From IMG/VR virus record IMGVR_UViG_3300027710_000005, positions 1-35,365 of that record: a DNA stretch of 35,365 nucleotides; one strand, written 5' to 3'. The notes under the pieces were generated by a model. The model did no database searches. It was given only the letters and a program-made list of their open reading frames with translations, and had not been told where the DNA came from. A program made the translations under genes and the position numbers. Shown here piece after piece: positions 401-32,125 of this stretch; position 1 is the stretch's first letter, and each line of letters begins with the position of its first letter. Origin of the DNA: a virus.

Positions 401-661
401 TTAACACTTCCATCGTTTAAGAGCTGCTTTTGCGCGTTCACCATCTTTGGCGTTAGCGGCTACTGCGCCCATCCTTGCACAAAATGAATCCTTGCGGCCT
501 TGGTCTGCTTTAGTTTTGGGATTGGGTGCTGGCGCTTTCAAGTTTGAGCCAGTAGCGGCATTGTATTTCTCGCGCCCTTTGGCAGTTAGACCAGCGCCTT
601 TGGATACTGGCAACTTCTCGCCACGCCCAACGGATAGTGAAACATTTTTCTTTGTTGCCAT
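401..661 (-). CDS. DUF6321-like protein, 86 aa
   Basis: The chosen start is ATG 661, one base after the large terminase stop (TGA-C-ATG). A longer reading from 694 would overlap the terminase and has no support. The product is basic, with a central GLTAKGREKYNAATGSNLKAP segment and the ending FCARMGAV...KAALKRWKC. This combination (AKGR-x-KYN, SNLKAP, SFCARM, KALKRWKC) is the signature I associate with DUF6321, a phage family of unknown role often found next to terminase. Family assignment is from memory of the motif. The function is open; the location suggests virion assembly or packaging. Confidence 0.75.
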   Translation of the reverse strand: MATKKNVSLSVGRGEKLPVSKGAGLTAKGREKYNAATGSNLKAPAPNPKTKADQGRKDSFCARMGAVAANAKDGERAKAALKRWKC

Positions 662-662
662 G

Positions 663-2186
663 TCAAGCCCCCATCCAACCACTAGATACCGCACTGCGTT
701 CAGTCACAATGCGCCGAGCCACTTCTGTGTACGAACGATGCGCCACAGGGAAAGCAAACGTCACAGCGATAGCATCCGCTGCGTCAGGAGAAGCCAAGCC
801 GCGAGCTTTCATCTCTTTTTTGCCTTCCAAAAATATAGTCCCTGACGAGTTAGGCTTCTTTGTCGGACCCGTCAGGTCTGCCCTCAACTGTCTGTCTTGC
901 GGAATACTAGCAGATTTTAGCCAGTTCCTCATGTCGTTCCACATCTCAGCGCGTTTATTTCCAAAGGCTTGTGGCTGTTTTGCCTTGTTTCCAAAGTTCA
1001 CACCCCTCACTTTGTATCGCTGTTCGTTCAGTCGGTCTAATATCCCGTAACCCAAACCACCTTCATCAATCACCGTCAGAGTAGGTTTGAATTCTTCAAT
1101 GGCATCAATGACGCGACCCACAATCTCCATTGTGTCTTCGCCCTTATATCGCTTGATCGCCACAATATCTCGCCCTTGTCTGACAGCAATGACCGTAGAG
1201 TCTGCGCCACCACGGGCAGGGTCAACCCCCACCACTATCGGGGCTGTTAAATCTTTCCATTTGGGACGTTTCATTGCGTCATCCACGATCATTGGGGAGA
1301 TAAATTGGTCTTCACCCGCAGATGGAAATTCTCCATAGACTTCAACCTTGGCTTGGGAGCTGTCTTCTCCGTATTCAGCAATGATTTGCTCATAGATTGA
1401 CTTGTCTGTGTCCTCAACAGTCCGAGCGTCAACGATTTTGGATGTCCAGAAGTCCCGTTTAGCGTGAAAGCACTCAAAGAAGTAGCCTTCGTTTCTACGG
1501 GGGTTGGAAAACGCAAACCAATAGCGATCTGGGCTGTTTTCTGTAAAGAATCCCGCGCCCACTTCCCAAATCGGGTTAGGAATACCGCTAGATTCGTCAA
1601 AAATAAGCATCATTCCGTCTTGGTTGTGGACACCAGCGTAAGAATCAGGGTTTTCGGCACTCCAGAGCTTGCCTTCACACGCCCAATAGCGCGTACCTTT
1701 CTTTAAATCACGCTCTACAAGGTCAGTTAGCCACTTAGCAGGGGTTAGTTTTGTCGCTGAGACTTCCCACCAATGCGAATTGATGAGCATAGCCGCCCAT
1801 TTTGTCAATTCAGCCCATGTGACCGAGCGCAATTGGTTCTCGCTGTTAGCCGAAACCACGACCGAGCCACCGATTCTTGTGGTCAGCATCCAAAGAATGA
1901 GCCAAGAAACTAGAGCAGACTTACCGATACCGCGACCAGACGAGACAGCCATGCGGATGGTTTCGTAGTCAATCAGCCCTTTTTGCTTCTTAATGTGGGC
2001 GGTGATGTCTCGCAAGACTTCACGTTGCCACTTTCTTGGACCGCTGAAGTTAGCCAAAGGCGTGTTTTTCTGTCCCCAAGGAAAAGCGAAGAGGACAAAG
2101 GCTTCAGGGTCATCTGCAATCGCAGGCGACCACAGTTCCACCATTAGCTTTTGTTCTTCTTCGGACTTATAGATTGGAGTTTGCAT
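663..2186 (-). CDS. terL: Terminase large subunit
   Basis: This 507-residue protein is the ATP-driven packaging motor and the nuclease that cuts concatemeric phage DNA. Walker A is GRGIGKS at residues 84-90. Walker B is MMLIFDE at 192-198, with D197 and catalytic E198. The C-terminal RNase H-like nuclease shows acidic residues in VDPARGG (D322), VIDEGG (D374) and SPDAADAI (D468/D471). Length is normal for a full-size TerL. It starts at ATG 2186, overlapping the preceding stop by one base (TAATG). It works with the small subunit at 4079-4624 and the portal at 32481-34682. Unusually, a 596-residue gene separates it from the small subunit. Confidence 0.96.
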   Translation of the reverse strand: MQTPIYKSEEEQKLMVELWSPAIADDPEAFVLFAFPWGQKNTPLANFSGPRKWQREVLRDITAHIKKQKGLIDYETIRMAVSSGRGIGKSALVSWLILWMLTTRIGGSVVVSANSENQLRSVTWAELTKWAAMLINSHWWEVSATKLTPAKWLTDLVERDLKKGTRYWACEGKLWSAENPDSYAGVHNQDGMMLIFDESSGIPNPIWEVGAGFFTENSPDRYWFAFSNPRRNEGYFFECFHAKRDFWTSKIVDARTVEDTDKSIYEQIIAEYGEDSSQAKVEVYGEFPSAGEDQFISPMIVDDAMKRPKWKDLTAPIVVGVDPARGGADSTVIAVRQGRDIVAIKRYKGEDTMEIVGRVIDAIEEFKPTLTVIDEGGLGYGILDRLNEQRYKVRGVNFGNKAKQPQAFGNKRAEMWNDMRNWLKSASIPQDRQLRADLTGPTKKPNSSGTIFLEGKKEMKARGLASPDAADAIAVTFAFPVAHRSYTEVARRIVTERSAVSSGWMGA

Positions 2187-3976
2187 TAACGACCTTTGCG
2201 GAGTTGGTTTTTGTCTTCAATTTGTTTTAAAGGGTCTTCTCTTTGGAAAACTTCTGAACCTAAAGGCAATGCAGGAACAGCAGCAAACATTTCTGGTCTA
2301 AATTTTTTAAACAACTCTTTGCGTTCTTCTGGTGTTGAATAGTAGTAAAGCTCTTGCAATCCTTGGTTTCTCAAATAGTCAATAGATTGTTTTGGAGCGT
2401 TGGCTGGCAAGATTGCGCCTTTAAATTCACCAACTTGAACAGCACGTTGAGGCTTAATCTCAAAATATTCTGTTGGCATTTCACGCAATTTGTTCATAAA
2501 CACTTGAACATCAGCTTTTAATGAAGCAGGAACGTCTTTGTAAATCTTGTCTAACAAGTTCACGTTTCTCGTTTGACCGATCTCATACAAAGCATCTGGT
2601 GCGTCATAACGATAACCAGACAATCCTTCAAGTTTTCCAAGGCGTTCTGTCAAATCTCCAAACGCACTGTCAATTTGCTTTTTGATTGGTTCAAATTTCT
2701 CAGGCGTAACAATGCTTTCACGCGCTGCTTTAACTTGATTCAAGTTTCTAAACTTAGGCGTAGCAACAGCCCTAATGTTGCCAACTCCATACATAAAACC
2801 TTCAGAACCAGCGCCGCCTTTCATTTCTTTTACAAGATTTTCAAGTGTTGCTGGCGCATATCTGCGGTTTCCAGAGTCTGTATAACCTTTAAAAATACGT
2901 TCTTTAATGTCAACACCAGCTTCAGGAAGCCTTTTGTTGAAATCGTTAAGCCAATCACCATACTCAGCTTTTAAGTTGTAAACACCATCGCTAAGTGCTT
3001 GGTTATATTTCCAACCATCATCAAAGTCTTTTCTATCTGGCAATACTCCTTTTTCTTTTAGGAACTTAGCCATCATTGGTTTTGAATATCGGCGGTCTTC
3101 CCAATTCTGAGCAAGTCTTGTCAATTCGTAATCGCCACCAACATCATCAGCAACATCTGCAAACATTCCTTGCAACTTCTTGGCTGACTTTGAATCCATT
3201 TGATAATCAATCTTTGGCGCTCTTGCTGTGTAAGCATCAAATCCATAAACAGGGTTTTTTGCTGACGGAACAGCCATTTCTTTTGAGCCAATCAATGAAA
3301 TGTCGCCAAAGTTGAGCATCGGGTTATCTACGTTAGACACCGCAATAGACGGAACAGGCATTCCACCAACTTTTTCCACATTTTCAAGTTTTTGTGGACT
3401 AATGTTGTGGTGAACAATCATTTCTTTGCCAGCTTCAACGCCAGGAACAAACGACTCACGTTTTGCAATAAACGCATTTCTAGGCTCAACAGCAAACATA
3501 GGTTGAGGCGTAATAGAAGCCAACGGCCCACGACCATAAACCATTGCCTCATTGATAGCACCACCCACTACCCGACCACCCGCTAATGCCGCTTGTCTAG
3601 CAAGTCTTGCAGCCTTTAACGCCTCCGCAGGAGTCATAGGCGCAACCGAACCAATCTCCCCTGCCACTTCTCCAACCCTAGAAGTAGGCTTTAACGGCAA
3701 TTCCTTGAGTAACTGACTAGTCCCATAAGGTAGAAGTTTCTGCTGACTGTAATCAACATCCCCAAACATCTCCATCGGCATAGGACTTCTGACCACATTC
3801 AACACATCAGAAGGCAATCCCAACGTACCCGCTACCCTACCCCGAAGCATCTGTAAAGGCACTTCAGTAGCACCTACAGGGTCTTGCACAGTCCTATTCC
3901 TGCGTAATTGCGGGTAATAGCCAAAGGCGGCTCCAAGTTCATTTTGACCTGGTGGGGTTAGCGAATTTTTAGGCAT
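2186..3976 (-). CDS. Polyvalent-type phage protein between the terminase genes
   Basis: This 596-residue protein has no signal peptide. Residues about 45-150 (GTLGLPSDVLNVV, ELPLKPTSRVGEVAGEIG, then an Ala-rich helical stretch with GGRVVGGAINEAM) resemble a region I know from large phage internal or polyvalent proteins. Residues 189-230 carry HHNISPQKL, GGMPVPSIAV and FGDISLIG, a motif set typical of domains in large polyvalent proteins that are thought to be injected with phage DNA. The C-terminal half is charged and helical. No catalytic residues can be named. It may be an ejected protein that acts in the new host cell, or an internal virion component. It overlaps the large terminase start by one base. 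No good ribosome binding site precedes ATG 3976, so expression may be low. Confidence 0.7.
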   Translation of the reverse strand: MPKNSLTPPGQNELGAAFGYYPQLRRNRTVQDPVGATEVPLQMLRGRVAGTLGLPSDVLNVVRSPMPMEMFGDVDYSQQKLLPYGTSQLLKELPLKPTSRVGEVAGEIGSVAPMTPAEALKAARLARQAALAGGRVVGGAINEAMVYGRGPLASITPQPMFAVEPRNAFIAKRESFVPGVEAGKEMIVHHNISPQKLENVEKVGGMPVPSIAVSNVDNPMLNFGDISLIGSKEMAVPSAKNPVYGFDAYTARAPKIDYQMDSKSAKKLQGMFADVADDVGGDYELTRLAQNWEDRRYSKPMMAKFLKEKGVLPDRKDFDDGWKYNQALSDGVYNLKAEYGDWLNDFNKRLPEAGVDIKERIFKGYTDSGNRRYAPATLENLVKEMKGGAGSEGFMYGVGNIRAVATPKFRNLNQVKAARESIVTPEKFEPIKKQIDSAFGDLTERLGKLEGLSGYRYDAPDALYEIGQTRNVNLLDKIYKDVPASLKADVQVFMNKLREMPTEYFEIKPQRAVQVGEFKGAILPANAPKQSIDYLRNQGLQELYYYSTPEERKELFKKFRPEMFAAVPALPLGSEVFQREDPLKQIEDKNQLRKGR

Positions 3977-4078
3977 AAGGCAAAAAAATAAAAAATTGTT
4001 CGTGAGTCCACCGTTCCTGTGACCTTTCCCTCTTGGCCCTCCCCCCTCCCCCTCGGCGGGATTTGGCGGGGCATAGGG
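3977..4078 (-). other. Non-coding spacer with a G-quadruplex motif
   Basis: About 100 bases lie between the small terminase stop and the polyvalent-type gene. On the minus strand the segment 4052-4028 has four runs of three or more G (5, 6, 3 and 3) with loops of 1, 1 and 6 bases, which fits the canonical G-quadruplex pattern. An A/T-rich stretch (3981-3999) follows near the next start codon. The position, next to the small terminase gene, makes a role in packaging-site recognition or in reduced translation of the next gene possible, but neither is shown. Confidence 0.5.
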
Positions 4079-4624
4079 TCAGTCTGGGTCTTTGGGCGTG
4101 ACATCTGTGGCTGCTGACTTGTCGAATGTTACCCTTGATTGAGCCTCCGTGATCGCATCAATGACGCTTATCCGCGCATCTGTAACGCTTACATCTATCT
4201 TATCGCCATATGTCCTTGGCTTCAACTTACTTGCTACCCACTTCCTGGCATCCACTTGCAGGCGCTTCTGCTGTACCCAAGCACTAGCCTCTGGTCCTCT
4301 CAAGCCTTCAGGCATCTCAGCGTCTGATAACTCAATGATCTCTTCTGCCAACCTGTCTGCCCTGTCCTCAACCGCTTTGTCGTACATGGCACGAAACTCT
4401 GCGCTAGTTGAGATCATGAGCCTAGCCATTGAGTAGCTTGGCATCCCTTCAGCCTTCAAGACGCTAGTTAGGCTTTTGCCTGCGCTTATGCCTTCAGCTA
4501 TCTCTTTCCAGATAGGGTTGGTGATCGGGAAGATAACTGGCCTTCCCATCTTCAAGATGCGAGGCAACTTCTCAGGTTTCTCCGATTCGATACTTTTAGG
4601 TATGTAATCAACTGCGTTTTTCAT
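4079..4624 (-). CDS. terS: Terminase small subunit
   Basis: This 181-residue protein probably recognises phage DNA and hands it to the large subunit. Residues about 35-80 form a helix-turn-helix-like part (EIAEGISAGKSLTSVLKAEG followed by MARLMISTSAEFRAMYD). The middle is helical (AVEDRADRLAEEIIELSD). The segment RLQVDARKWVASKLKPRTYG is a hallmark of a widespread small-terminase family. The start ATG 4624 has a GGGGTAATG purine stretch just upstream. It is the first gene of the late block, directly after the 290-base non-coding region, as in many phages. Confidence 0.9.
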   Translation of the reverse strand: MKNAVDYIPKSIESEKPEKLPRILKMGRPVIFPITNPIWKEIAEGISAGKSLTSVLKAEGMPSYSMARLMISTSAEFRAMYDKAVEDRADRLAEEIIELSDAEMPEGLRGPEASAWVQQKRLQVDARKWVASKLKPRTYGDKIDVSVTDARISVIDAITEAQSRVTFDKSAATDVTPKDPD

Positions 4625-18051: not shown

Positions 18052-19914
18052 TTATGGGGCAAGAGAATTGACGGATGATGAAGCAGGGGCTAACTTGTTT
18101 GGTTGCTTTAATGCTTCTTCAACTTGACCTTTAACCTGACGGGTTCTTGCAAACTCAGCCGCTGTTTTAGCAAGAGGAACTTTAATTGGCAACTTGTCCA
18201 AAGCTTCCAAACCACGAAGCACAGCACCAGCCGTGTTAGGGTAGTTTACAGCGCCAGGCTCTTTGACCACCACATCTTTGATTGCATCACGCAAATCCAT
18301 GATCTGGTCACGGCCTGTCTTGCCAAACATATACGCCAATTTGTCTTCTGAATCCAACTGATTGACTATAGTATTCAGGTTCCTAAAAGACAACTGATCG
18401 CCTTTTGTCAGCAATTCTTTCATGTGTTGAATAGTTTGACCTTGCAACTCAGCATAGGCTTGGCGACCTTCTGGACCTGCTTTTTTCAGCAACTGAGTAA
18501 CAGTTCTCATTTCTTCCAAAGAACCATCCAACACAACGTGTTTGAACACATCATCCAAAGCAACTCGGCGGTCTTTGTAACCAGCCTTAGTGCCTAACAA
18601 CTTGTCAACACGGGATACGTCTTCAAACTCTTTAGCCAACTGCGCTCTAGCAGAGCGGGCAGCTTGGTAAAGTTCACCACCAGCACCTTCACCCATTTGG
18701 GTAATGGTAGATTTCAATTTACTAGCGTTAGGTGAATCTTTGACTTGGTTGATCTGTTGGTAAATGTCTTCCAACGCACGAACAGTAATAGTTCCTGTTT
18801 TGTCAGGGTCGTTCATAGCCAACGATTCAGCCACAGAATCTAGGATTGGGTCTAGCTTCTGGCGCATTGTTGGTGTCTTGCTGTTGATCAGGTCAAGCAA
18901 AGGCTGATAGGACACAGGTTGCAATGTCTCACCTGATTCGTCAGCTTGCTTGTAAAGAGCCTTATAGTTATCGTACTTCTTGGTGTACGCATCATTCAAG
19001 GCTTTGTCAACCACACGACCAACTTGACGCAATTGCGTTGGGTCGGCAACTTCAGCACCAACTTCTTGGGTCATGCGTTCAAAGTTATTAGTGATGGCTT
19101 GCTTTTGGTTGACTTTAAAGTTACGCATTCTTTCAGCCAACTTAGTCTTCTCTTCTTCACCAATGCCAGAAATAGCACCACGCGCAACATCAGATTCAAA
19201 CTGTTGTTGAGCCAAGGACTTGGTACGCTCACCCGCTGTAGCAGGGATGCCAAGACGTTGTAGGCGCTCTTCACGCATCAATTGCTCAGATGTCTCAGCA
19301 GCGCCCATACCTTGCATTGCAGGGGTTTGCTCACGCTGAACAACTTTAGCCAAAGCATTAGCGGCTGGCGTAGTTGCTTGTTTAACAGCAGGCACAACAA
19401 CAGAACGAAGTTGATTAGCCGCCGCAGGGGTTAATGTGCTTAATGCAACGCCTGCGCTAGTCAATGGTGTAGGTGGAATAGCACCCAAAACATTGCCAAC
19501 TGTTTGCACAATCTCTTGTCCAGTTTCTGTGCGAGGCTGATAGAACTGACTAGCAACAGTCCTTGCGGCTTGTTCGCCAGCGGCTCTACCTTGTGGAGTG
19601 CCATAGCCTGCAACAGCTTCGCCAAACATCTTAGCAACTGGCGTAGCAATAGCACGACCCACATTGCCCGCAATGATGGCAGGAGTTTCAACAACGCCCA
19701 TAACACGATCTTGCATTGATCGCTCTGTCTTTGGCAGAGTAATCATGCTTGCGTTGTCAGGGATTAGCGCCGAAGGGCTAAGTGCAATTGACTTAAAAAA
19801 GTCTTCCTTTGGCATATTCGCATAAAACTTTTCATGCAAAGAGTTAGCCAATGCCAAGTCTGGCATTTCGTTGTACTGAGGATATTTAGCGCGGAACTCA
19901 ACAAGCGTTGCCAT
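18052..19914 (-). CDS. Ejection protein, gp16-like, 620 aa
   Basis: ATG 19914 follows AGGAAAATAAAT. The N-terminus FRAKYPQYNEMPDLALANSL with HEKFYANMPKEDFF is a motif I associate with large internal or ejected proteins of podoviruses. The rest is long, Ala/Gln/Lys-rich and predicted mainly helical or coiled coil (for example around 210-300 and 370-460), without transmembrane segments. It follows two other ejection-type genes in the order seen in P22 (7, 20, 16). Such proteins leave the virion with the DNA and build a conduit across the envelope. The exact equivalence to gp16 is inferred from order and size. Confidence 0.75.
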   Translation of the reverse strand: MATLVEFRAKYPQYNEMPDLALANSLHEKFYANMPKEDFFKSIALSPSALIPDNASMITLPKTERSMQDRVMGVVETPAIIAGNVGRAIATPVAKMFGEAVAGYGTPQGRAAGEQAARTVASQFYQPRTETGQEIVQTVGNVLGAIPPTPLTSAGVALSTLTPAAANQLRSVVVPAVKQATTPAANALAKVVQREQTPAMQGMGAAETSEQLMREERLQRLGIPATAGERTKSLAQQQFESDVARGAISGIGEEEKTKLAERMRNFKVNQKQAITNNFERMTQEVGAEVADPTQLRQVGRVVDKALNDAYTKKYDNYKALYKQADESGETLQPVSYQPLLDLINSKTPTMRQKLDPILDSVAESLAMNDPDKTGTITVRALEDIYQQINQVKDSPNASKLKSTITQMGEGAGGELYQAARSARAQLAKEFEDVSRVDKLLGTKAGYKDRRVALDDVFKHVVLDGSLEEMRTVTQLLKKAGPEGRQAYAELQGQTIQHMKELLTKGDQLSFRNLNTIVNQLDSEDKLAYMFGKTGRDQIMDLRDAIKDVVVKEPGAVNYPNTAGAVLRGLEALDKLPIKVPLAKTAAEFARTRQVKGQVEEALKQPNKLAPASSSVNSLAP

Positions 19915-19916
19915 AT

Positions 19917-21377
19917 TTATTTTCCTGGCTTATTCAGCAAACCAAGTGGGTCATTGTCAGATGCGCTTGGCAATCCTTTAAGAGCTTCTCTAGTTGCTCT
20001 AGGTACGCGACCATAGGTGTTTTCTACGTTTGTTGCGCTACGCTTTAGCATTTCTTCAATGACTTGAATTTGCTCTTCAAAACCTTTTTTGGTTGTGAAC
20101 TTTCCAGACCAAGAAGCAGGGTTTGTAAGTTGAGATTCAATAATTGCCATGTCAGGACCAGCCAACGCGCCAAGCGTGTACAAATCTTTCACACCCATCA
20201 ACAAAGATGTGTACTTAGCTTGCATCCTAGCTGTATCTGCGCCAGTTGGTAAGAACTTTGCACTTGTAAATAAATTCTTGCCAACTTCGTCTTTAAATTC
20301 TTTAAGCGAACCAGCCAATCCCGCCAATTGCATATCCGTGTCATTAAATTTAACTGGCGCTTCTTTGCGCGGGCCTTTTAATGGCATACCAGCTTGTGGC
20401 ATTTGTGGTGTTGTAGTTGCCACAGGAGTAGCAGGCGCACGTTGGTCTAACACGCTATTCATGCCTGGGATTACTTGTGAGCTTGTTGGTGTTAATCTAT
20501 TAACATTTGCTGGCGTTGGGGCTAGATTGTTAGCAGGAATTCTTGGGCTTCCACCCATTGGAGAAGCTGTAGGTGCAACACCTCCACCCATAGGAGCCGC
20601 GCCACCCATTGTTATAGGAAATGCTTGCCCCGTAAGTTTGTTTACGCCAACGATGTCGCCATTTTCAGTTTCTTTAAGTTCAAAGCCAGGGTTGGCTTTT
20701 TCCCAATTAAACTTCTCACGCGCAAACTCATCAGCAATGGTTGCTGTCTTTTTGAATTCTTGAATTTGTTGTTTAAATGTTGGACTATTAGGGTTTGTGT
20801 CTATAACGACAATCTTTCCATTTAAATCAAATTTTTCAGGCTTTGGCTGTACAAAAGTTAAGGCTTGGCGACCTTCTGGATTTGAAGTCACATACTGCGT
20901 GATAACTGCTTTACGTTTTGCAAGATCAGGCTCAGACAAAAGGCTTTGGCGAAAGCGTGTAGTATCAACGCCCGTTGCATCTAAACGATCAAAAGCCGCC
21001 GTTAAGCTAGAGTCAGAAGGGTCGTTTAAAACAGAAGTTAAGCCAGTACCAAGAGCAGTCATTTGCTGATCACGCACTTTGCCTTTCAGTTCTTGACGCT
21101 TCAACTCATTTGTTTGTTGTTCAGTAAGTAACTTTTGGTAACCTAAACCAGTTTTGCCAAATCTGCTTAAACCTGAAACACCATATGGCGTTGACAAGTC
21201 TGCCTTATTTAAATAGTCAATTACGCCTTGTTCTTGCTCCATTTGCTGACGAGCCAACTGGTTTTGCAATTGCGAAGTTTGCAGTTGCTGAATTTGTGCG
21301 TATTCCTGCAATGGATTGCGCTGTTCAAACTGTGTTGGTCTGAACCCCATTGCAATGTTTGGGTCAACGAGTGCCAT
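19917..21377 (-). CDS. Ejection protein, gp20-like, 486 aa
   Basis: The N-terminal 120 residues are Gln-rich helices (EYAQIQQLQTSQLQNQLARQ, then EQQTNELKRQELKGKV). A middle region follows with strand-like segments (KFDLNGKIVVIDTNPNSPTF). A Pro/Ala/Gly-rich linker at about 265-340 leads to a helical C-terminus. Low-complexity helical composition, absence of membrane segments and position between the gp7-like and gp16-like genes support an internal virion protein ejected with DNA. Sequence-level similarity to P22 gp20 cannot be judged by eye. Confidence 0.72.
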   Translation of the reverse strand: MALVDPNIAMGFRPTQFEQRNPLQEYAQIQQLQTSQLQNQLARQQMEQEQGVIDYLNKADLSTPYGVSGLSRFGKTGLGYQKLLTEQQTNELKRQELKGKVRDQQMTALGTGLTSVLNDPSDSSLTAAFDRLDATGVDTTRFRQSLLSEPDLAKRKAVITQYVTSNPEGRQALTFVQPKPEKFDLNGKIVVIDTNPNSPTFKQQIQEFKKTATIADEFAREKFNWEKANPGFELKETENGDIVGVNKLTGQAFPITMGGAAPMGGGVAPTASPMGGSPRIPANNLAPTPANVNRLTPTSSQVIPGMNSVLDQRAPATPVATTTPQMPQAGMPLKGPRKEAPVKFNDTDMQLAGLAGSLKEFKDEVGKNLFTSAKFLPTGADTARMQAKYTSLLMGVKDLYTLGALAGPDMAIIESQLTNPASWSGKFTTKKGFEEQIQVIEEMLKRSATNVENTYGRVPRATREALKGLPSASDNDPLGLLNKPGK

Positions 21378-21386
21378 GTTTTTTCC

Positions 21387-22112
21387 TTATCTTATTCCAA
21401 TTTCAGCGTTATAACCTGAATATGGTTCGCTCATTAAAGAGTTATTACCTCTATTGTTTAACGCTTGTTGCAATAAAGAATTTGTGGCTTGGTTTTGGTT
21501 GTAGTTTAAATATTGGTTGAACCCTTGGTTGGCAGCATTTGCCACGCCCATGTATCCAGACGCTGTTGCTTGACCAGCCGCGCCAATGGCTTGACCAGCA
21601 TTGTTGGCATAGTTTTGACCAGCCGCGCCAAGTTGATTGACTGAAGTTTGACCAAGGCCAGCCAATGATTGCAAAGGATTGAGGCGTGCGTTGCGCTCAG
21701 TTTGGTAACGGTTAAATGCGTTCATGTATTCTTGCGAACCCATGTCCTGACCGTAACGGGTAGCGGCTTTTAAAGCGTTTCCAGAAATCAATCCACCACG
21801 CGCCGCCGCTGATTGCTGAAGTGCTTTTTGACCTTCTGCTAAACGGAAAGCATAGCCTGGGTCTTGTTGAAACTGTTGCATCCCAAATGGGGTGTACTCA
21901 GAAGCCAATTCAAGTTTACCAAGGGCGCGTTCTCCCGCTTGGCGATAAGGCGCTTGCAATTCAATTTGGCGCTCAAATTGTTCTTGCTGAAGTTGGGCGG
22001 CACGATTTGCGGCATCAGCTTGCGTTCTTGCTGCGCTTTTGGCGGCACTGCCACCAAGCATTGCCCCACCAATAGTTCCTGCCAAAATTGCGGTTCCAGT
22101 TCCTACTGCCAT
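21387..22112 (-). CDS. Ejection protein, gp7-like, 241 aa
   Basis: ATG 22112 lies 10 bases inside the end of the acetyltransferase gene, with AGAGGTC as ribosome binding site. The hydrophobic Gly/Ala-rich N-terminus (TAILAGTIGGAMLGGSAAKS) is followed by a long helix (ANRAAQLQQEQFERQIELQA) and repetitive Ala/Asn/Gln segments (QLGAAGQNYANNAGQAIGAA). This pattern (glycine-rich start, APYRQAGERAL, then AFNRYQTER) is frequent in DNA-transfer proteins of podoviruses. It is probably the smallest of the three ejected proteins and may enter the membrane. Confidence 0.78.
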   Translation of the reverse strand: MAVGTGTAILAGTIGGAMLGGSAAKSAARTQADAANRAAQLQQEQFERQIELQAPYRQAGERALGKLELASEYTPFGMQQFQQDPGYAFRLAEGQKALQQSAAARGGLISGNALKAATRYGQDMGSQEYMNAFNRYQTERNARLNPLQSLAGLGQTSVNQLGAAGQNYANNAGQAIGAAGQATASGYMGVANAANQGFNQYLNYNQNQATNSLLQQALNNRGNNSLMSEPYSGYNAEIGIR

Positions 22113-27888: not shown

Positions 27889-28677
27889 TTAGCGGTTGCG
27901 CTGCGCTTCCCACTTCTTTGTCTGTCGTAAGCGTTCAGCTTCAATCCACTGCGAAGTTGTCATACTCTTGATAGAGCGCGGGTCCGTAGTGTCTAAGGCT
28001 GGTGAACCAGTGGTTCTTGCTGTAACAGGCGAAATCGGTGCTGGCGCAGAAGTCGTTTTTTTAACTGGCGGGTTATCGGCTAACTTAGCCTCAATCTTGC
28101 CAATCTCTTTTGCTTGCATGAAAGGCGATAAACGAGAAATACGTTCCGCATCCTTTGGGTTGGTTCCGAGATAGTAAGCTAACTCAGGGCCAATTTCTGA
28201 ATGTTGAATCGTCTCTGCCATCACGTTTGTGATCGGTAGGTTAGGGTTATATGCGACTTGTTCAAAGTCATCATATTTATCCCGCGCCATCTCTTCACGC
28301 TCTTGATAGCTCTCTAGAACTTGCGACTGTTGCTTTGCGGCTTCCCGTTGCTGGACTAATTTCTCTGCCTCTAAACGGATGAAATCCGCATAGTCATTAG
28401 GAGATTGAAACTGGTCTGGCGTTGGAATCTCACTTGGCACGACTTGTCTTTCAACAGATCGTTGCGCTTGTTCACGTTCCCACTTTCGTTGCTCTCTTGC
28501 GAGGCGTTTGCCAATCATTGCATCAATGTCAGCTTGCGAGTACTTCTTTTCCTCTACAGGCTGTTCGGTGCTTTCATCAGCAACTACCGACTTTTGTTCT
28601 ACATTCTCAGGAGTGGTCGTCACTTCAGGAGATGGCGCGGAGTCAACTTCCGCTAGGTTTTGGACTTCTTCAGTCAT
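27889..28677 (-). CDS. Scaffolding protein, 262 aa
   Basis: The protein is acidic at the N-terminus (EEVQNLAEVDSAPSPEVTTT), then helical and highly charged (RLAREQRKWEREQAQRS, EKLVQQREAAKQQSQVLESY), and basic at the C-terminus (RLRQTKKWEAQRNR). This is the composition of P22-type scaffolding proteins, whose basic C-terminal helix-loop-helix binds coat. Its position directly before the coat gene is the standard one. It guides procapsid assembly and leaves before packaging. No protease gene is adjacent. Confidence 0.85.
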   Translation of the reverse strand: MTEEVQNLAEVDSAPSPEVTTTPENVEQKSVVADESTEQPVEEKKYSQADIDAMIGKRLAREQRKWEREQAQRSVERQVVPSEIPTPDQFQSPNDYADFIRLEAEKLVQQREAAKQQSQVLESYQEREEMARDKYDDFEQVAYNPNLPITNVMAETIQHSEIGPELAYYLGTNPKDAERISRLSPFMQAKEIGKIEAKLADNPPVKKTTSAPAPISPVTARTTGSPALDTTDPRSIKSMTTSQWIEAERLRQTKKWEAQRNR

Positions 28678-30205: not shown

Positions 30206-32125
30206 TTAAAAAGTCATTTCTGTAGTTTCCAAACGGGCCACGGCGCGAATGGTTGTCCCCGCCTGACCTGTGAAAGTGATAGCTAAACCGCCATTGGTGG
30301 TGTCTGCTGCGGCTGCGATAGTCCATGTGGCAGCGCCTACGTCAGCAAATGGAGACATGACTGTGACGCCTACAACGGTCGTAGAAGCAGCGTTAGCGCC
30401 ACGTTTGATGACACCTTCGATTGTCCAGCCTTTAGTGTTTCCACCACCAGTTACACCAGCAACCACAGTTCCTCTGAAATAATAGGCTGAGTTGTTGGGT
30501 AGGATTACTTGGTTGGTTGTGGAAGGGCTGCTTACTTCAGAACATAAAATAGTTGGAGTTGCGTCTGTGGTCTGTCGGCTAAGTACAAGCATTCCTGCTT
30601 GAACCATACCTTGTGTATTATTTATTGGGGCATTAGATGCAGAAAACGAAATAAACCCGCTAATTCCTCTTGTTGCGCCATATCGCCCAAGAATCGTTGA
30701 ATAGCTGCCACTTGCGGTATTTTGATAGCCACCAACAACAGTTGCGCCAATGTTTGATGCAGTATTTCCAAACCCGCCAGAAATAGTGCTTGCTTCACCA
30801 GACGCAGTATTTCCACCTGAAAACCCTGTTTGTATGCCACCGCCACCAACAAATGCGCCAATTGCCGAAGCAGTATTTCCACGCCCACCCGCAACAGTAG
30901 ACCAATCCCCACTAGCCACGTTCCTATTAGCAGCAGTACCAGCGTCACCACCACCACCGATGAAACTGTAAGAGCCTGTGGCTTGGTTGTTACCTCCACC
31001 TACTACTACTCCGTGAGGGGTGAAGAAAGATAGGGTTGATGTTGATGAGCCACTAGCTGCTTGAGATAGCGTCAGGGATGTACCGCTGATGGCTGCAACG
31101 TAGGTAAACGAAGCAATAGAAGTACCTACAACAGACTGCCCAACTTTAATGTTTGCGTTAGAACCTGACAACGTGACCGCTGTAGTGCCATTCATCGTGC
31201 CAGACTGTGTAGTTACTGCGGCAAGAGCGTTTGCACTATTTATGTATCCGCCGCCTACAAAATTAAAAGTTCCTGCGGCAGTATTTCCGTAACCACCTGC
31301 TGCAACACTTGCATAGCCTGATGCAACATTACCACCGCCAGCCGCAACAGAATATGTGCTTGATGCGGTAGAGTTTTGACCGCCAGTAACTACGGCTGCT
31401 GGGCCTGAAGCAGTATTGCCCGTTCCACCACATACAACTGAGTAATTATTGGAAGATGTATTTTGTACACCGCCAGCAATTACAGCGGCTAAACCATTAG
31501 CGACCTGAGTTGCACCAGTCCTGCTCATCTGCCAATCAACAGCATTAGCACCCCTAGCATTACCACCTGTGGCTGTAGAGTCTGTCTGTTGGGCTTGTAA
31601 GGCTCCTGTGCCTTTTGGTTGAAGGACTAGGGGGATGTTTGTGTTACTTCCTTGAGCAGAAAGTTGAACAGCATTACCTGTTGAAGCACCAGTAACCTGT
31701 ACGTAGTTCACAGCAGAGCTGGTATTGGCTACAGAAAACTGTCTTGCCCCAACGTTTTGCGTATAAAAATCTATGCTTCCTGTGCCTCTTGAAGTAAACA
31801 CAGGGCCAACGTTAGTATCAGAACCTTGGACAGAAATAATTGGTTGAAAGCCAGCAGAAGCACCAACAACTCTCATGTAGTTTGCTGACGCAGTTCCAAG
31901 GTTTGTCTGACCAGTTGCAGTTAACGTAGTAAACGTACCAGCAGCAGGGGTTGTAGCGCCTACTGTAGCGCCGTTGATCGTACCGCCTGTGATTGCTACG
32001 GCATTGGCATCTTGTTCAGCCATAGTCCCCACGCCTGACAGCGCATGGTCAGCGTTCCACGCCGCAGCGCCAGTAGAACTAAACGAACTATCAGCGGGGG
32101 TGGTGTGGGTTACAACTACGGTCAT
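30206..32125 (-). CDS. YadA-head-like adhesin/fibre, 639 aa
   Basis: ATG 32125 overlaps the previous stop (ATGA). Residues 1-80 include ITGGTINGATVGATTPAAGT, a common phage-fibre motif. Residues 212-300 and 372-482 hold many copies of a degenerate 14-16-residue unit of the form GNxASGxxSxVxGG, the left-handed beta-roll repeat of YadA/Hia-type adhesin heads; an unrelated insert (301-371) splits them. Residues 495-639 are a C-terminal beta domain (MLVLSRQTTDATPTILCSE, TTNQVILPNNSAYYFRGTV) seen on phage fibre tips. It is probably a trimeric receptor-binding fibre. Its position in the head-gene block, not beside the tail fibre, is unusual. Confidence 0.82.
   Translation of the reverse strand: MTVVVTHTTPADSSFSSTGAAAWNADHALSGVGTMAEQDANAVAITGGTINGATVGATTPAAGTFTTLTATGQTNLGTASANYMRVVGASAGFQPIISVQGSDTNVGPVFTSRGTGSIDFYTQNVGARQFSVANTSSAVNYVQVTGASTGNAVQLSAQGSNTNIPLVLQPKGTGALQAQQTDSTATGGNARGANAVDWQMSRTGATQVANGLAAVIAGGVQNTSSNNYSVVCGGTGNTASGPAAVVTGGQNSTASSTYSVAAGGGNVASGYASVAAGGYGNTAAGTFNFVGGGYINSANALAAVTTQSGTMNGTTAVTLSGSNANIKVGQSVVGTSIASFTYVAAISGTSLTLSQAASGSSTSTLSFFTPHGVVVGGGNNQATGSYSFIGGGGDAGTAANRNVASGDWSTVAGGRGNTASAIGAFVGGGGIQTGFSGGNTASGEASTISGGFGNTASNIGATVVGGYQNTASGSYSTILGRYGATRGISGFISFSASNAPINNTQGMVQAGMLVLSRQTTDATPTILCSEVSSPSTTNQVILPNNSAYYFRGTVVAGVTGGGNTKGWTIEGVIKRGANAASTTVVGVTVMSPFADVGAATWTIAAAADTTNGGLAITFTGQAGTTIRAVARLETTEMTF

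What the first reader, a model, noticed from the sequence alone, without database searches (positions are those of the whole stretch)
2186..3976. Polyvalent-type protein sits between the two terminase genes
Small and large terminase genes are normally adjacent. Here a 596-residue gene separates them and is coupled to terL by a one-base overlap. Its residues 189-230 (HHN, GGMPVPSIAV, FGDISLIG) match a domain I know from large phage polyvalent proteins, which are believed to be injected. A full-size candidate effector in the packaging cassette suggests it may be loaded into the head during packaging, or that the site tolerates cargo genes.
Basis: partly seen in the sequence, partly recalled or inferred. 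Interest (0 to 1): 0.62.

Follow-up and report, generated by a model that had tools for sequence, protein, structure and literature searches.

The report
Swappable phage effector with shared tag
Between its two DNA-packaging genes this freshwater phage carries an interchangeable weapon-like protein (a predicted RNA-cutting enzyme) whose first residues carry the same short sequence tag as the proteins the phage injects into bacteria, suggesting a simple label by which phages choose what cargo to load and inject.

Summary
On the minus strand, TerS (4079-4624), a 596-aa gene (2186-3976) and TerL (663-2186) follow one another, and the middle gene overlaps terL by one base. Residues 179-310 are Pfam PF18814, PBECR5 (1e-24), a nuclease family named from phage polyvalent proteins. 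The whole 173-575 region is one confidently predicted domain (pLDDT 90).

The TerS-TerL interval is a variable cargo slot. Of 41 related loci, 30 hold a 322-840 aa gene and 10 are empty (103-389 bp). The cargo C-termini fall into at least nine unrelated classes. A near-identical phage keeps the N-terminus but carries a different effector.

New here: nearly all slot proteins begin with a short tag (NxL[AT]P...NxL). In these phages the tag is otherwise almost confined to the two P22 gp20/gp16-position ejection proteins. At homology-cluster level, 6 of 7 ejection/cargo clusters carry it against 1 of 253 others (p about 1e-10).

Best reading: a virion-loaded, injected effector cassette with a swappable catalytic part, recruited like the ejection proteins. 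The domain, slot, swapping and shared tag are shown computationally. Encapsidation, injection and RNase activity are inferred. The strict polyvalent-protein definition (several catalytic domains) is not met.

The parts
2186..3976 (-). cargo/effector gene, 596 aa: N-terminal tag + variable N-terminal module + PBECR5 domain
3932..3967 (-). N-terminal tag, residues 4-15, NSLTPPGQNELG (NxL[AT]P...NxL)
3461..3931 (-). N-terminal module, residues 16-172, low-confidence/disordered in AF2; reused with other effectors in L050, L051, L070, L073, L086, L089
2252..3460 (-). PBECR5 domain region, residues 173-575, AF2 pLDDT 90.3, pTM 0.86
3407..3409 (-). codon of H190, invariant in 31 diverse relatives; candidate catalytic residue
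2453..2473 (-). codons of T502-K508 (TEYFEIK), near-invariant C-terminal motif; candidate catalytic T
663..2186 (-). terminase large subunit; start overlaps cargo stop by one base
4079..4624 (-). terminase small subunit
3977..4078 (-). 102-bp leader between TerS and cargo; conserved element AAAGGTCACAGGAACGGTG at 4009-4027; in empty-slot relatives the same leader sits in front of TerL
18052..19914 (-). P22 gp16-position ejection protein (620 aa), ends in NKLAPASSSVNSLAP
   Evidence: position and isolate DSL-LC05 annotation
18055..18099 (-). tag copies at the C-terminus of the 620-aa protein (residues 606-620)
19917..21377 (-). P22 gp20-position ejection protein (486 aa)
   Evidence: position
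20487..20531 (-). tag copies inside the 486-aa protein (residues 283-297, NNLAPTPANVNRLTP)
21387..22112 (-). P22 gp7-type DNA ejection protein (phrog_598, 5e-41); no tag
27889..28677 (-). head scaffolding protein, candidate receptor of the tag

Best explanation
The gene is one allele of an effector slot in a lineage of freshwater P22-like podoviruses. It is transcribed with the late genes. Its first ~15 residues carry a tag (NxL[AT]P...NxL) shared with the gp20- and gp16-position ejection proteins. The tag is probably read by the assembling head (scaffold is the likeliest receptor, as in P22), so the protein is enclosed in the procapsid and leaves with the ejection proteins at infection. In the cell, the C-terminal PBECR5 domain (invariant H190, near-invariant T502) probably cuts host or defence-related RNA. 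Recombination swaps the C-terminal part for other effectors while keeping the tag. Shown by computation: domain, variable slot, swapping, shared tag. Inferred: encapsidation, injection, RNase activity, identity of the receptor.
For: PBECR5 match 1e-24, with invariant His and near-invariant TEYFEIK across relatives down to 26% identity. Slot occupied in 30 and empty in 10 of 41 loci, with nine unlinked tagged C-terminal classes. L050 (TerL 98%, cargo residues 1-137 96% identical) has a different C-terminus with LPD23 and an HELQH motif. Tag on 38 of 41 unique slot proteins. Tag in 6/7 ejection/cargo clusters vs 1/253 others, p 1.2e-10; 37 copies in 21.5k aa vs 7 in 137.7k aa. In isolate DSL-LC05 the only copy is in the 'putative DNA transfer protein'. 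Tag absent from ejection-position proteins of other PBECR5-bearing lineages. PBECR5 homologues lie in the giant protein beside internal virion proteins of Ab9 and Carin1.
Against: There are no virion proteomics. The tag pattern was defined after seeing the window, although it was then tested on relatives. The tag is not in every ejection protein (8 of 17 in the gp20-type cluster; absent or altered in some gp16-position proteins). No PDB fold matched the model, and the model puts H190 in a strand rather than the helix described for BECR enzymes, so RNase chemistry is unproven. gp16/gp20 assignment rests on position and on one isolate's annotation.
Confidence: 0.6

Rival explanations
1. The effector is made late and acts inside the cell that produces the phage (host RNA shut-off or exclusion of rival phages); it is never packaged.
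For: A late-operon position alone fits this. Some cargo classes have a class-specific small opposite-strand ORF beside them that could be an antitoxin protecting the producer.
Against: It does not explain the tag shared with ejection proteins or the placement of homologous domains beside internal virion proteins.
Confidence: 0.2
2. It is a virion-internal structural or ejection accessory: the tag assembles it into the ejection conduit, and the enzymatic fold serves only as a binding module.
For: The tag is shared with ejection proteins; Iyer et al. describe an inactive PBECR in phage Mu gp30 (PMC5512222).
Against: The slot is empty in 10 of 41 relatives and its contents are wholly unrelated, which a conduit part should not tolerate. 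The candidate catalytic residues are conserved.
Confidence: 0.1
3. It is a packaging accessory (a nuclease or regulator of the terminase), given its place between TerS and TerL and its one-base coupling to TerL.
For: Position and coupling.
Against: Phages with TerL 85-95% identical lack it (L069, L081, L088, L099-L101, L103, L104). The same domain sits in other positions in other lineages. Unrelated proteins replace it.
Confidence: 0.03
4. The tag is not a packaging signal but a post-injection anchor, a cleavage site, or a composition effect of Ala/Pro-rich linkers.
For: Ejection proteins are Ala/Pro-rich; the receptor is unknown.
Against: Within-protein shuffles give 0.93 expected against 26 observed in ejection proteins. 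The tag is at the termini and often doubled. Different codons encode it in the three window proteins.
Confidence: 0.15

Closest known systems
Polyvalent proteins / PBECR5 domain (Iyer et al. 2017, PMC5512222; Pfam PF18814)
   Same: Same domain family; late-gene context; modular relatives with LPD23 and others; predicted virion delivery.
   Different: The chain is 596 aa with one recognised effector domain, not a multi-enzyme giant. It sits between TerS and TerL. It carries a lineage tag shared with ejection proteins, which I did not find in that paper.
MuF polymorphic toxins (Jamet et al. 2017, PMC5576092)
   Same: Conserved N-terminal part, variable C-terminal effector, packaging-module location, proposed phage delivery.
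   Different: No MuF domain match; TerS-TerL slot of podovirus-like phages; no downstream immunity gene in the window (cargo stop overlaps terL); no integrase noticed in the window.
T4 capsid targeting sequence on internal proteins and Alt (own knowledge; targeting of foreign proteins is the subject of Mullaney & Black 1996, cited in PMC8402733)
   Same: Short N-terminal peptide proposed to send proteins into the head for injection.
   Different: Different sequence (NxL[AT]P); also at the C-terminus or middle of ejection proteins; no head protease seen.
P22 ejection proteins gp7/gp16/gp20 (PMC8402733)
   Same: Same gene order and a phrog_598 gp7 homologue. In P22, scaffold is needed to recruit ejection proteins, and for gp7 and gp20 the N-terminal portion is held responsible.
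   Different: No NxLAP-type tag was looked for in P22. The cargo here is dispensable and swappable.

Membership tests
PBECR5 (PF18814) | Profile match above the curated cut-off | tested here: met
   88.2 bits against 25, residues 179-310; all 31 aligned relatives match
PBECR5 (PF18814) | His plus C-terminal Ser/Thr active-site configuration | tested here: met
   H190 invariant, T502 near-invariant in 31 sequences
PBECR5 (PF18814) | BECR fold with the His in the N-terminal helix | tested here: inconclusive
   AF2 pLDDT 90, but H190 lies in a strand before the first helix; no PDB match at E<=0.001; viral matches are polyvalent/nuclease proteins
Polyvalent proteins | Two or more domains of disparate activity in one chain | tested here: not met
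   Only PBECR5 found in P0001. Relative L004 has LPD23 (weak) plus PBECR5
Polyvalent proteins | Phage type encoded among late/virion genes | tested here: met
   Between TerS and TerL
Polyvalent proteins | Delivered with DNA into the host | not testable with these tools
   Needs virion proteomics
MuF polymorphic toxin | N-terminal MuF domain | tested here: not met
   No MuF match in P0001
MuF polymorphic toxin | Small immunity ORF directly downstream | tested here: not met
   Window cargo stop overlaps terL start; small opposite-strand ORFs only in some other classes
MuF polymorphic toxin | Variable C-terminal effector on a conserved N-terminus | tested here: met

The most novel reading that the evidence does not exclude
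NxL[AT]P...NxL is a transferable encapsidation/ejection signal of P22-like podoviruses. Any protein carrying it is loaded with the ejection proteins and injected, so effector domains moving between phage lineages become virion cargo by acquiring the lineage's tag.
Probability: 0.42. Interest if true: 0.82.

Novelty: new variant of a known kind. Interest (0 to 1): 0.63.

Why it matters
How phages with small heads choose which proteins to enclose and inject is an open question outside T4. A short motif shared by swappable effectors and ejection proteins gives a concrete, mutable candidate signal, a way to find injected effectors in podovirus genomes by sequence, and a possible handle for loading chosen proteins into phage heads. 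The TerS-TerL slot would be a ready-made catalogue of injected effectors, most with no known domain.

Tried and rejected
AF2 of the full chain gave pLDDT 52, and its PDB search was meaningless. PDB fold search of the good domain model found nothing at E<=0.001; stray DarT hits at E>3 were not pursued. PDB sequence searches found only coiled-coil or chance matches. A raw pattern scan within genomes was swamped by inherited coincidences, and a single-representative scan was dominated by Gly repeats, so I used homology clusters instead. A second candidate tag (GLL[DA]) in the other PBECR5 lineage was only weakly enriched and is not claimed. PADLOC gave no hits. The packaging-accessory idea was rejected because of empty slots. 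The genome-contig scan gave three MAG contigs of mixed taxonomy, so the host remains unknown. No Rfam or tRNA matches.

Full report
WHAT IS THERE. The window is an IMG/VR virus record of 35,365 bp with a 127-bp direct terminal repeat, so it is probably a complete podovirus-like genome. On the minus strand the order is TerS (4079-4624), the 596-aa gene (2186-3976) and TerL (663-2186), with a one-base TAATG overlap between the last two. The portal is P22-type, and scaffold, coat and a gp7-type DNA ejection protein (phrog_598, 5e-41) were recognised. The two large genes after the gp7 homologue (486 and 620 aa) lie in the P22 gp20 and gp16 positions. This is by position, supported by the isolate DSL-LC05, where the corresponding flanking genes are annotated 'DNA transfer protein' and 'putative DNA transfer protein'.

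THE DOMAIN. Residues 179-310 match Pfam PBECR5 (1e-24), and 334-551 match phrog_22978 (1.3e-29). Aligning 31 relatives, down to 26% identity, gives an invariant H190 and a near-invariant TEYFEIK at 502-508. This fits the His + Ser/Thr active-site configuration described for five of the six PBECR families (PMC5512222). With that alignment residues 173-575 fold with pLDDT 90.3 and pTM 0.86. No solved structure matches significantly. In the viral library the matches are polyvalent-type and 'nuclease' proteins. In the model H190 sits in a strand before the first helix rather than in a helix, so the BECR assignment, and with it RNase activity, stays a prediction. The N-terminal part is low-confidence, probably disordered.

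THE SLOT. From 80 close TerL relatives (81-99% identity) I measured the TerS-TerL interval. Where a TerS of this family is present (41 loci, leaving out two repeat views of the same contigs), 30 hold a 322-840 aa co-directional gene, 10 have only 103-389 bp, and one holds a 141-aa ORF. L069, with TerL 95% identical, is empty. In the cases inspected a conserved leader ending in AAAGGTCACAGGAACGGTG...AATTTTTTATTTTTTT precedes the cargo start when the slot is full and TerL when it is empty, so gain or loss is close to start-codon precise. The cargo C-termini fall into ten clusters not linked by phmmer, nine of them on tagged proteins. L050 (TerL 98%, cargo residues 1-137 96% identical) has another C-terminus, with LPD23 (2e-8) and an HELQH motif. 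L051 (TerL 99%) has a third, a 766-aa protein. DNA similarity between L050 and the window stops inside the cargo gene and resumes about 27 bp before TerL. Conversely, the PBECR5 part (61-94% identical) occurs with several unrelated N-termini and at other positions: just upstream of TerS-TerL-portal, or after ejection-position genes at the end of a structural operon. In Acinetobacter phage Ab9 and Cobetia phage Carin1 the related domain lies inside a ~2,850-aa protein after internal virion protein and lysozyme genes.

THE TAG. In the window, N-x-L-[AT]-P occurs five times and only in three proteins: the start of the cargo, the C-terminus of the 620-aa protein (twice) and inside the 486-aa protein (twice). 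Shuffling gives 0.32 expected. The pattern was found by eye, so I tested it on 15 relatives. Their ejection and cargo proteins hold 37 copies in 21.5k residues, against 7 in 137.7k elsewhere; ejection proteins alone hold 26 against 0.93 expected. To remove inheritance I grouped 697 proteins into 260 homology clusters: 6 of 7 ejection/cargo clusters carry the tag in at least 40% of members, against 1 of 253 others (p 1.2e-10). The exception is a 150-aa single protein that itself starts with the tag. Of 41 unique slot proteins, 38 start with it (23 strict, 15 loose). In DSL-LC05 the only copy in six-frame ORFs is near the C-terminus of the 'putative DNA transfer protein'. It is not found in the ejection-position proteins of four phages from other lineages that carry the same PBECR5 part (one unrelated N.LTP hit, NILTPDQ, in a gp20-position protein of G024 is read as chance). 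The three window copies use different codons, which favours selection on the protein.

MECHANISM. Most likely the cargo is late-expressed, enclosed in the procapsid by the same recognition as the ejection proteins, and injected. In P22 scaffold is needed for ejection-protein incorporation, and the N-terminal portions of gp7 and gp20 are held responsible (PMC8402733), so scaffold is the first candidate receptor. Inside the host the domain would cut RNA. Iyer et al. suggest mRNA or defence-related RNA for PBECR (PMC5512222). Loading, injection and target are inferred.

AGAINST AND LIMITS. There are no proteomics, the host is unknown, the tag is missing from some ejection proteins, and gp16/gp20 identity is positional. 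A late intracellular effector that is never packaged remains possible.

NOVELTY. The domain and the idea of phage-delivered modular effectors are known (polyvalent proteins, MuF toxins). What I did not find described in the papers read is this TerS-TerL effector slot and the short tag linking swappable cargo to ejection proteins; the literature search was limited. I rate it a new variant of a known kind.

Noticed in passing
4009-4027 (-), within 3977-4078: Conserved G-rich/T-rich leader (AAAGGTCACAGGAACGGTG...AATTTTTTATTTTTTT) right after TerS in the relatives inspected, before cargo or TerL; candidate pac/cos site, late promoter or leader. Single copy in the window.
   Followed up: partly
L077:6771-6980, L078:6766-6972, L094:3949-4140 (and L108): Small opposite-strand ORFs (63-70 aa) overlapping the 3' end of certain cargo classes, each class with its own ORF; candidate antitoxin/immunity genes. 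None at the window's cargo.
   Followed up: partly
L146:8038-8490: 150-aa protein starting MPQIANRLAPNPSNALAS between TerL and portal in a near-identical phage; the only non-ejection, non-cargo cluster with the tag, possibly a second small cargo.
   Followed up: no
401-694 (-); L018, L003, L039, L046 and about 24 loci with cluster c4: DUF6321-type or similar small basic proteins recur next to the cargo gene in unrelated lineages (after TerL in the window).
   Followed up: no
30206-32125 (-): 639-aa low-complexity repeat protein between portal and scaffold, replaced by different large proteins in close relatives (509 aa in G001, 766 aa in G002); another variable locus, perhaps receptor-binding.
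   Followed up: no
L061, L021, L020 cargo C-termini: In another TerL lineage different effectors share a C-terminal tail PALPLGxxGLL..EE; GLL[DA] also starts ejection-position proteins (MAGLLD), only weakly enriched.
   Followed up: partly
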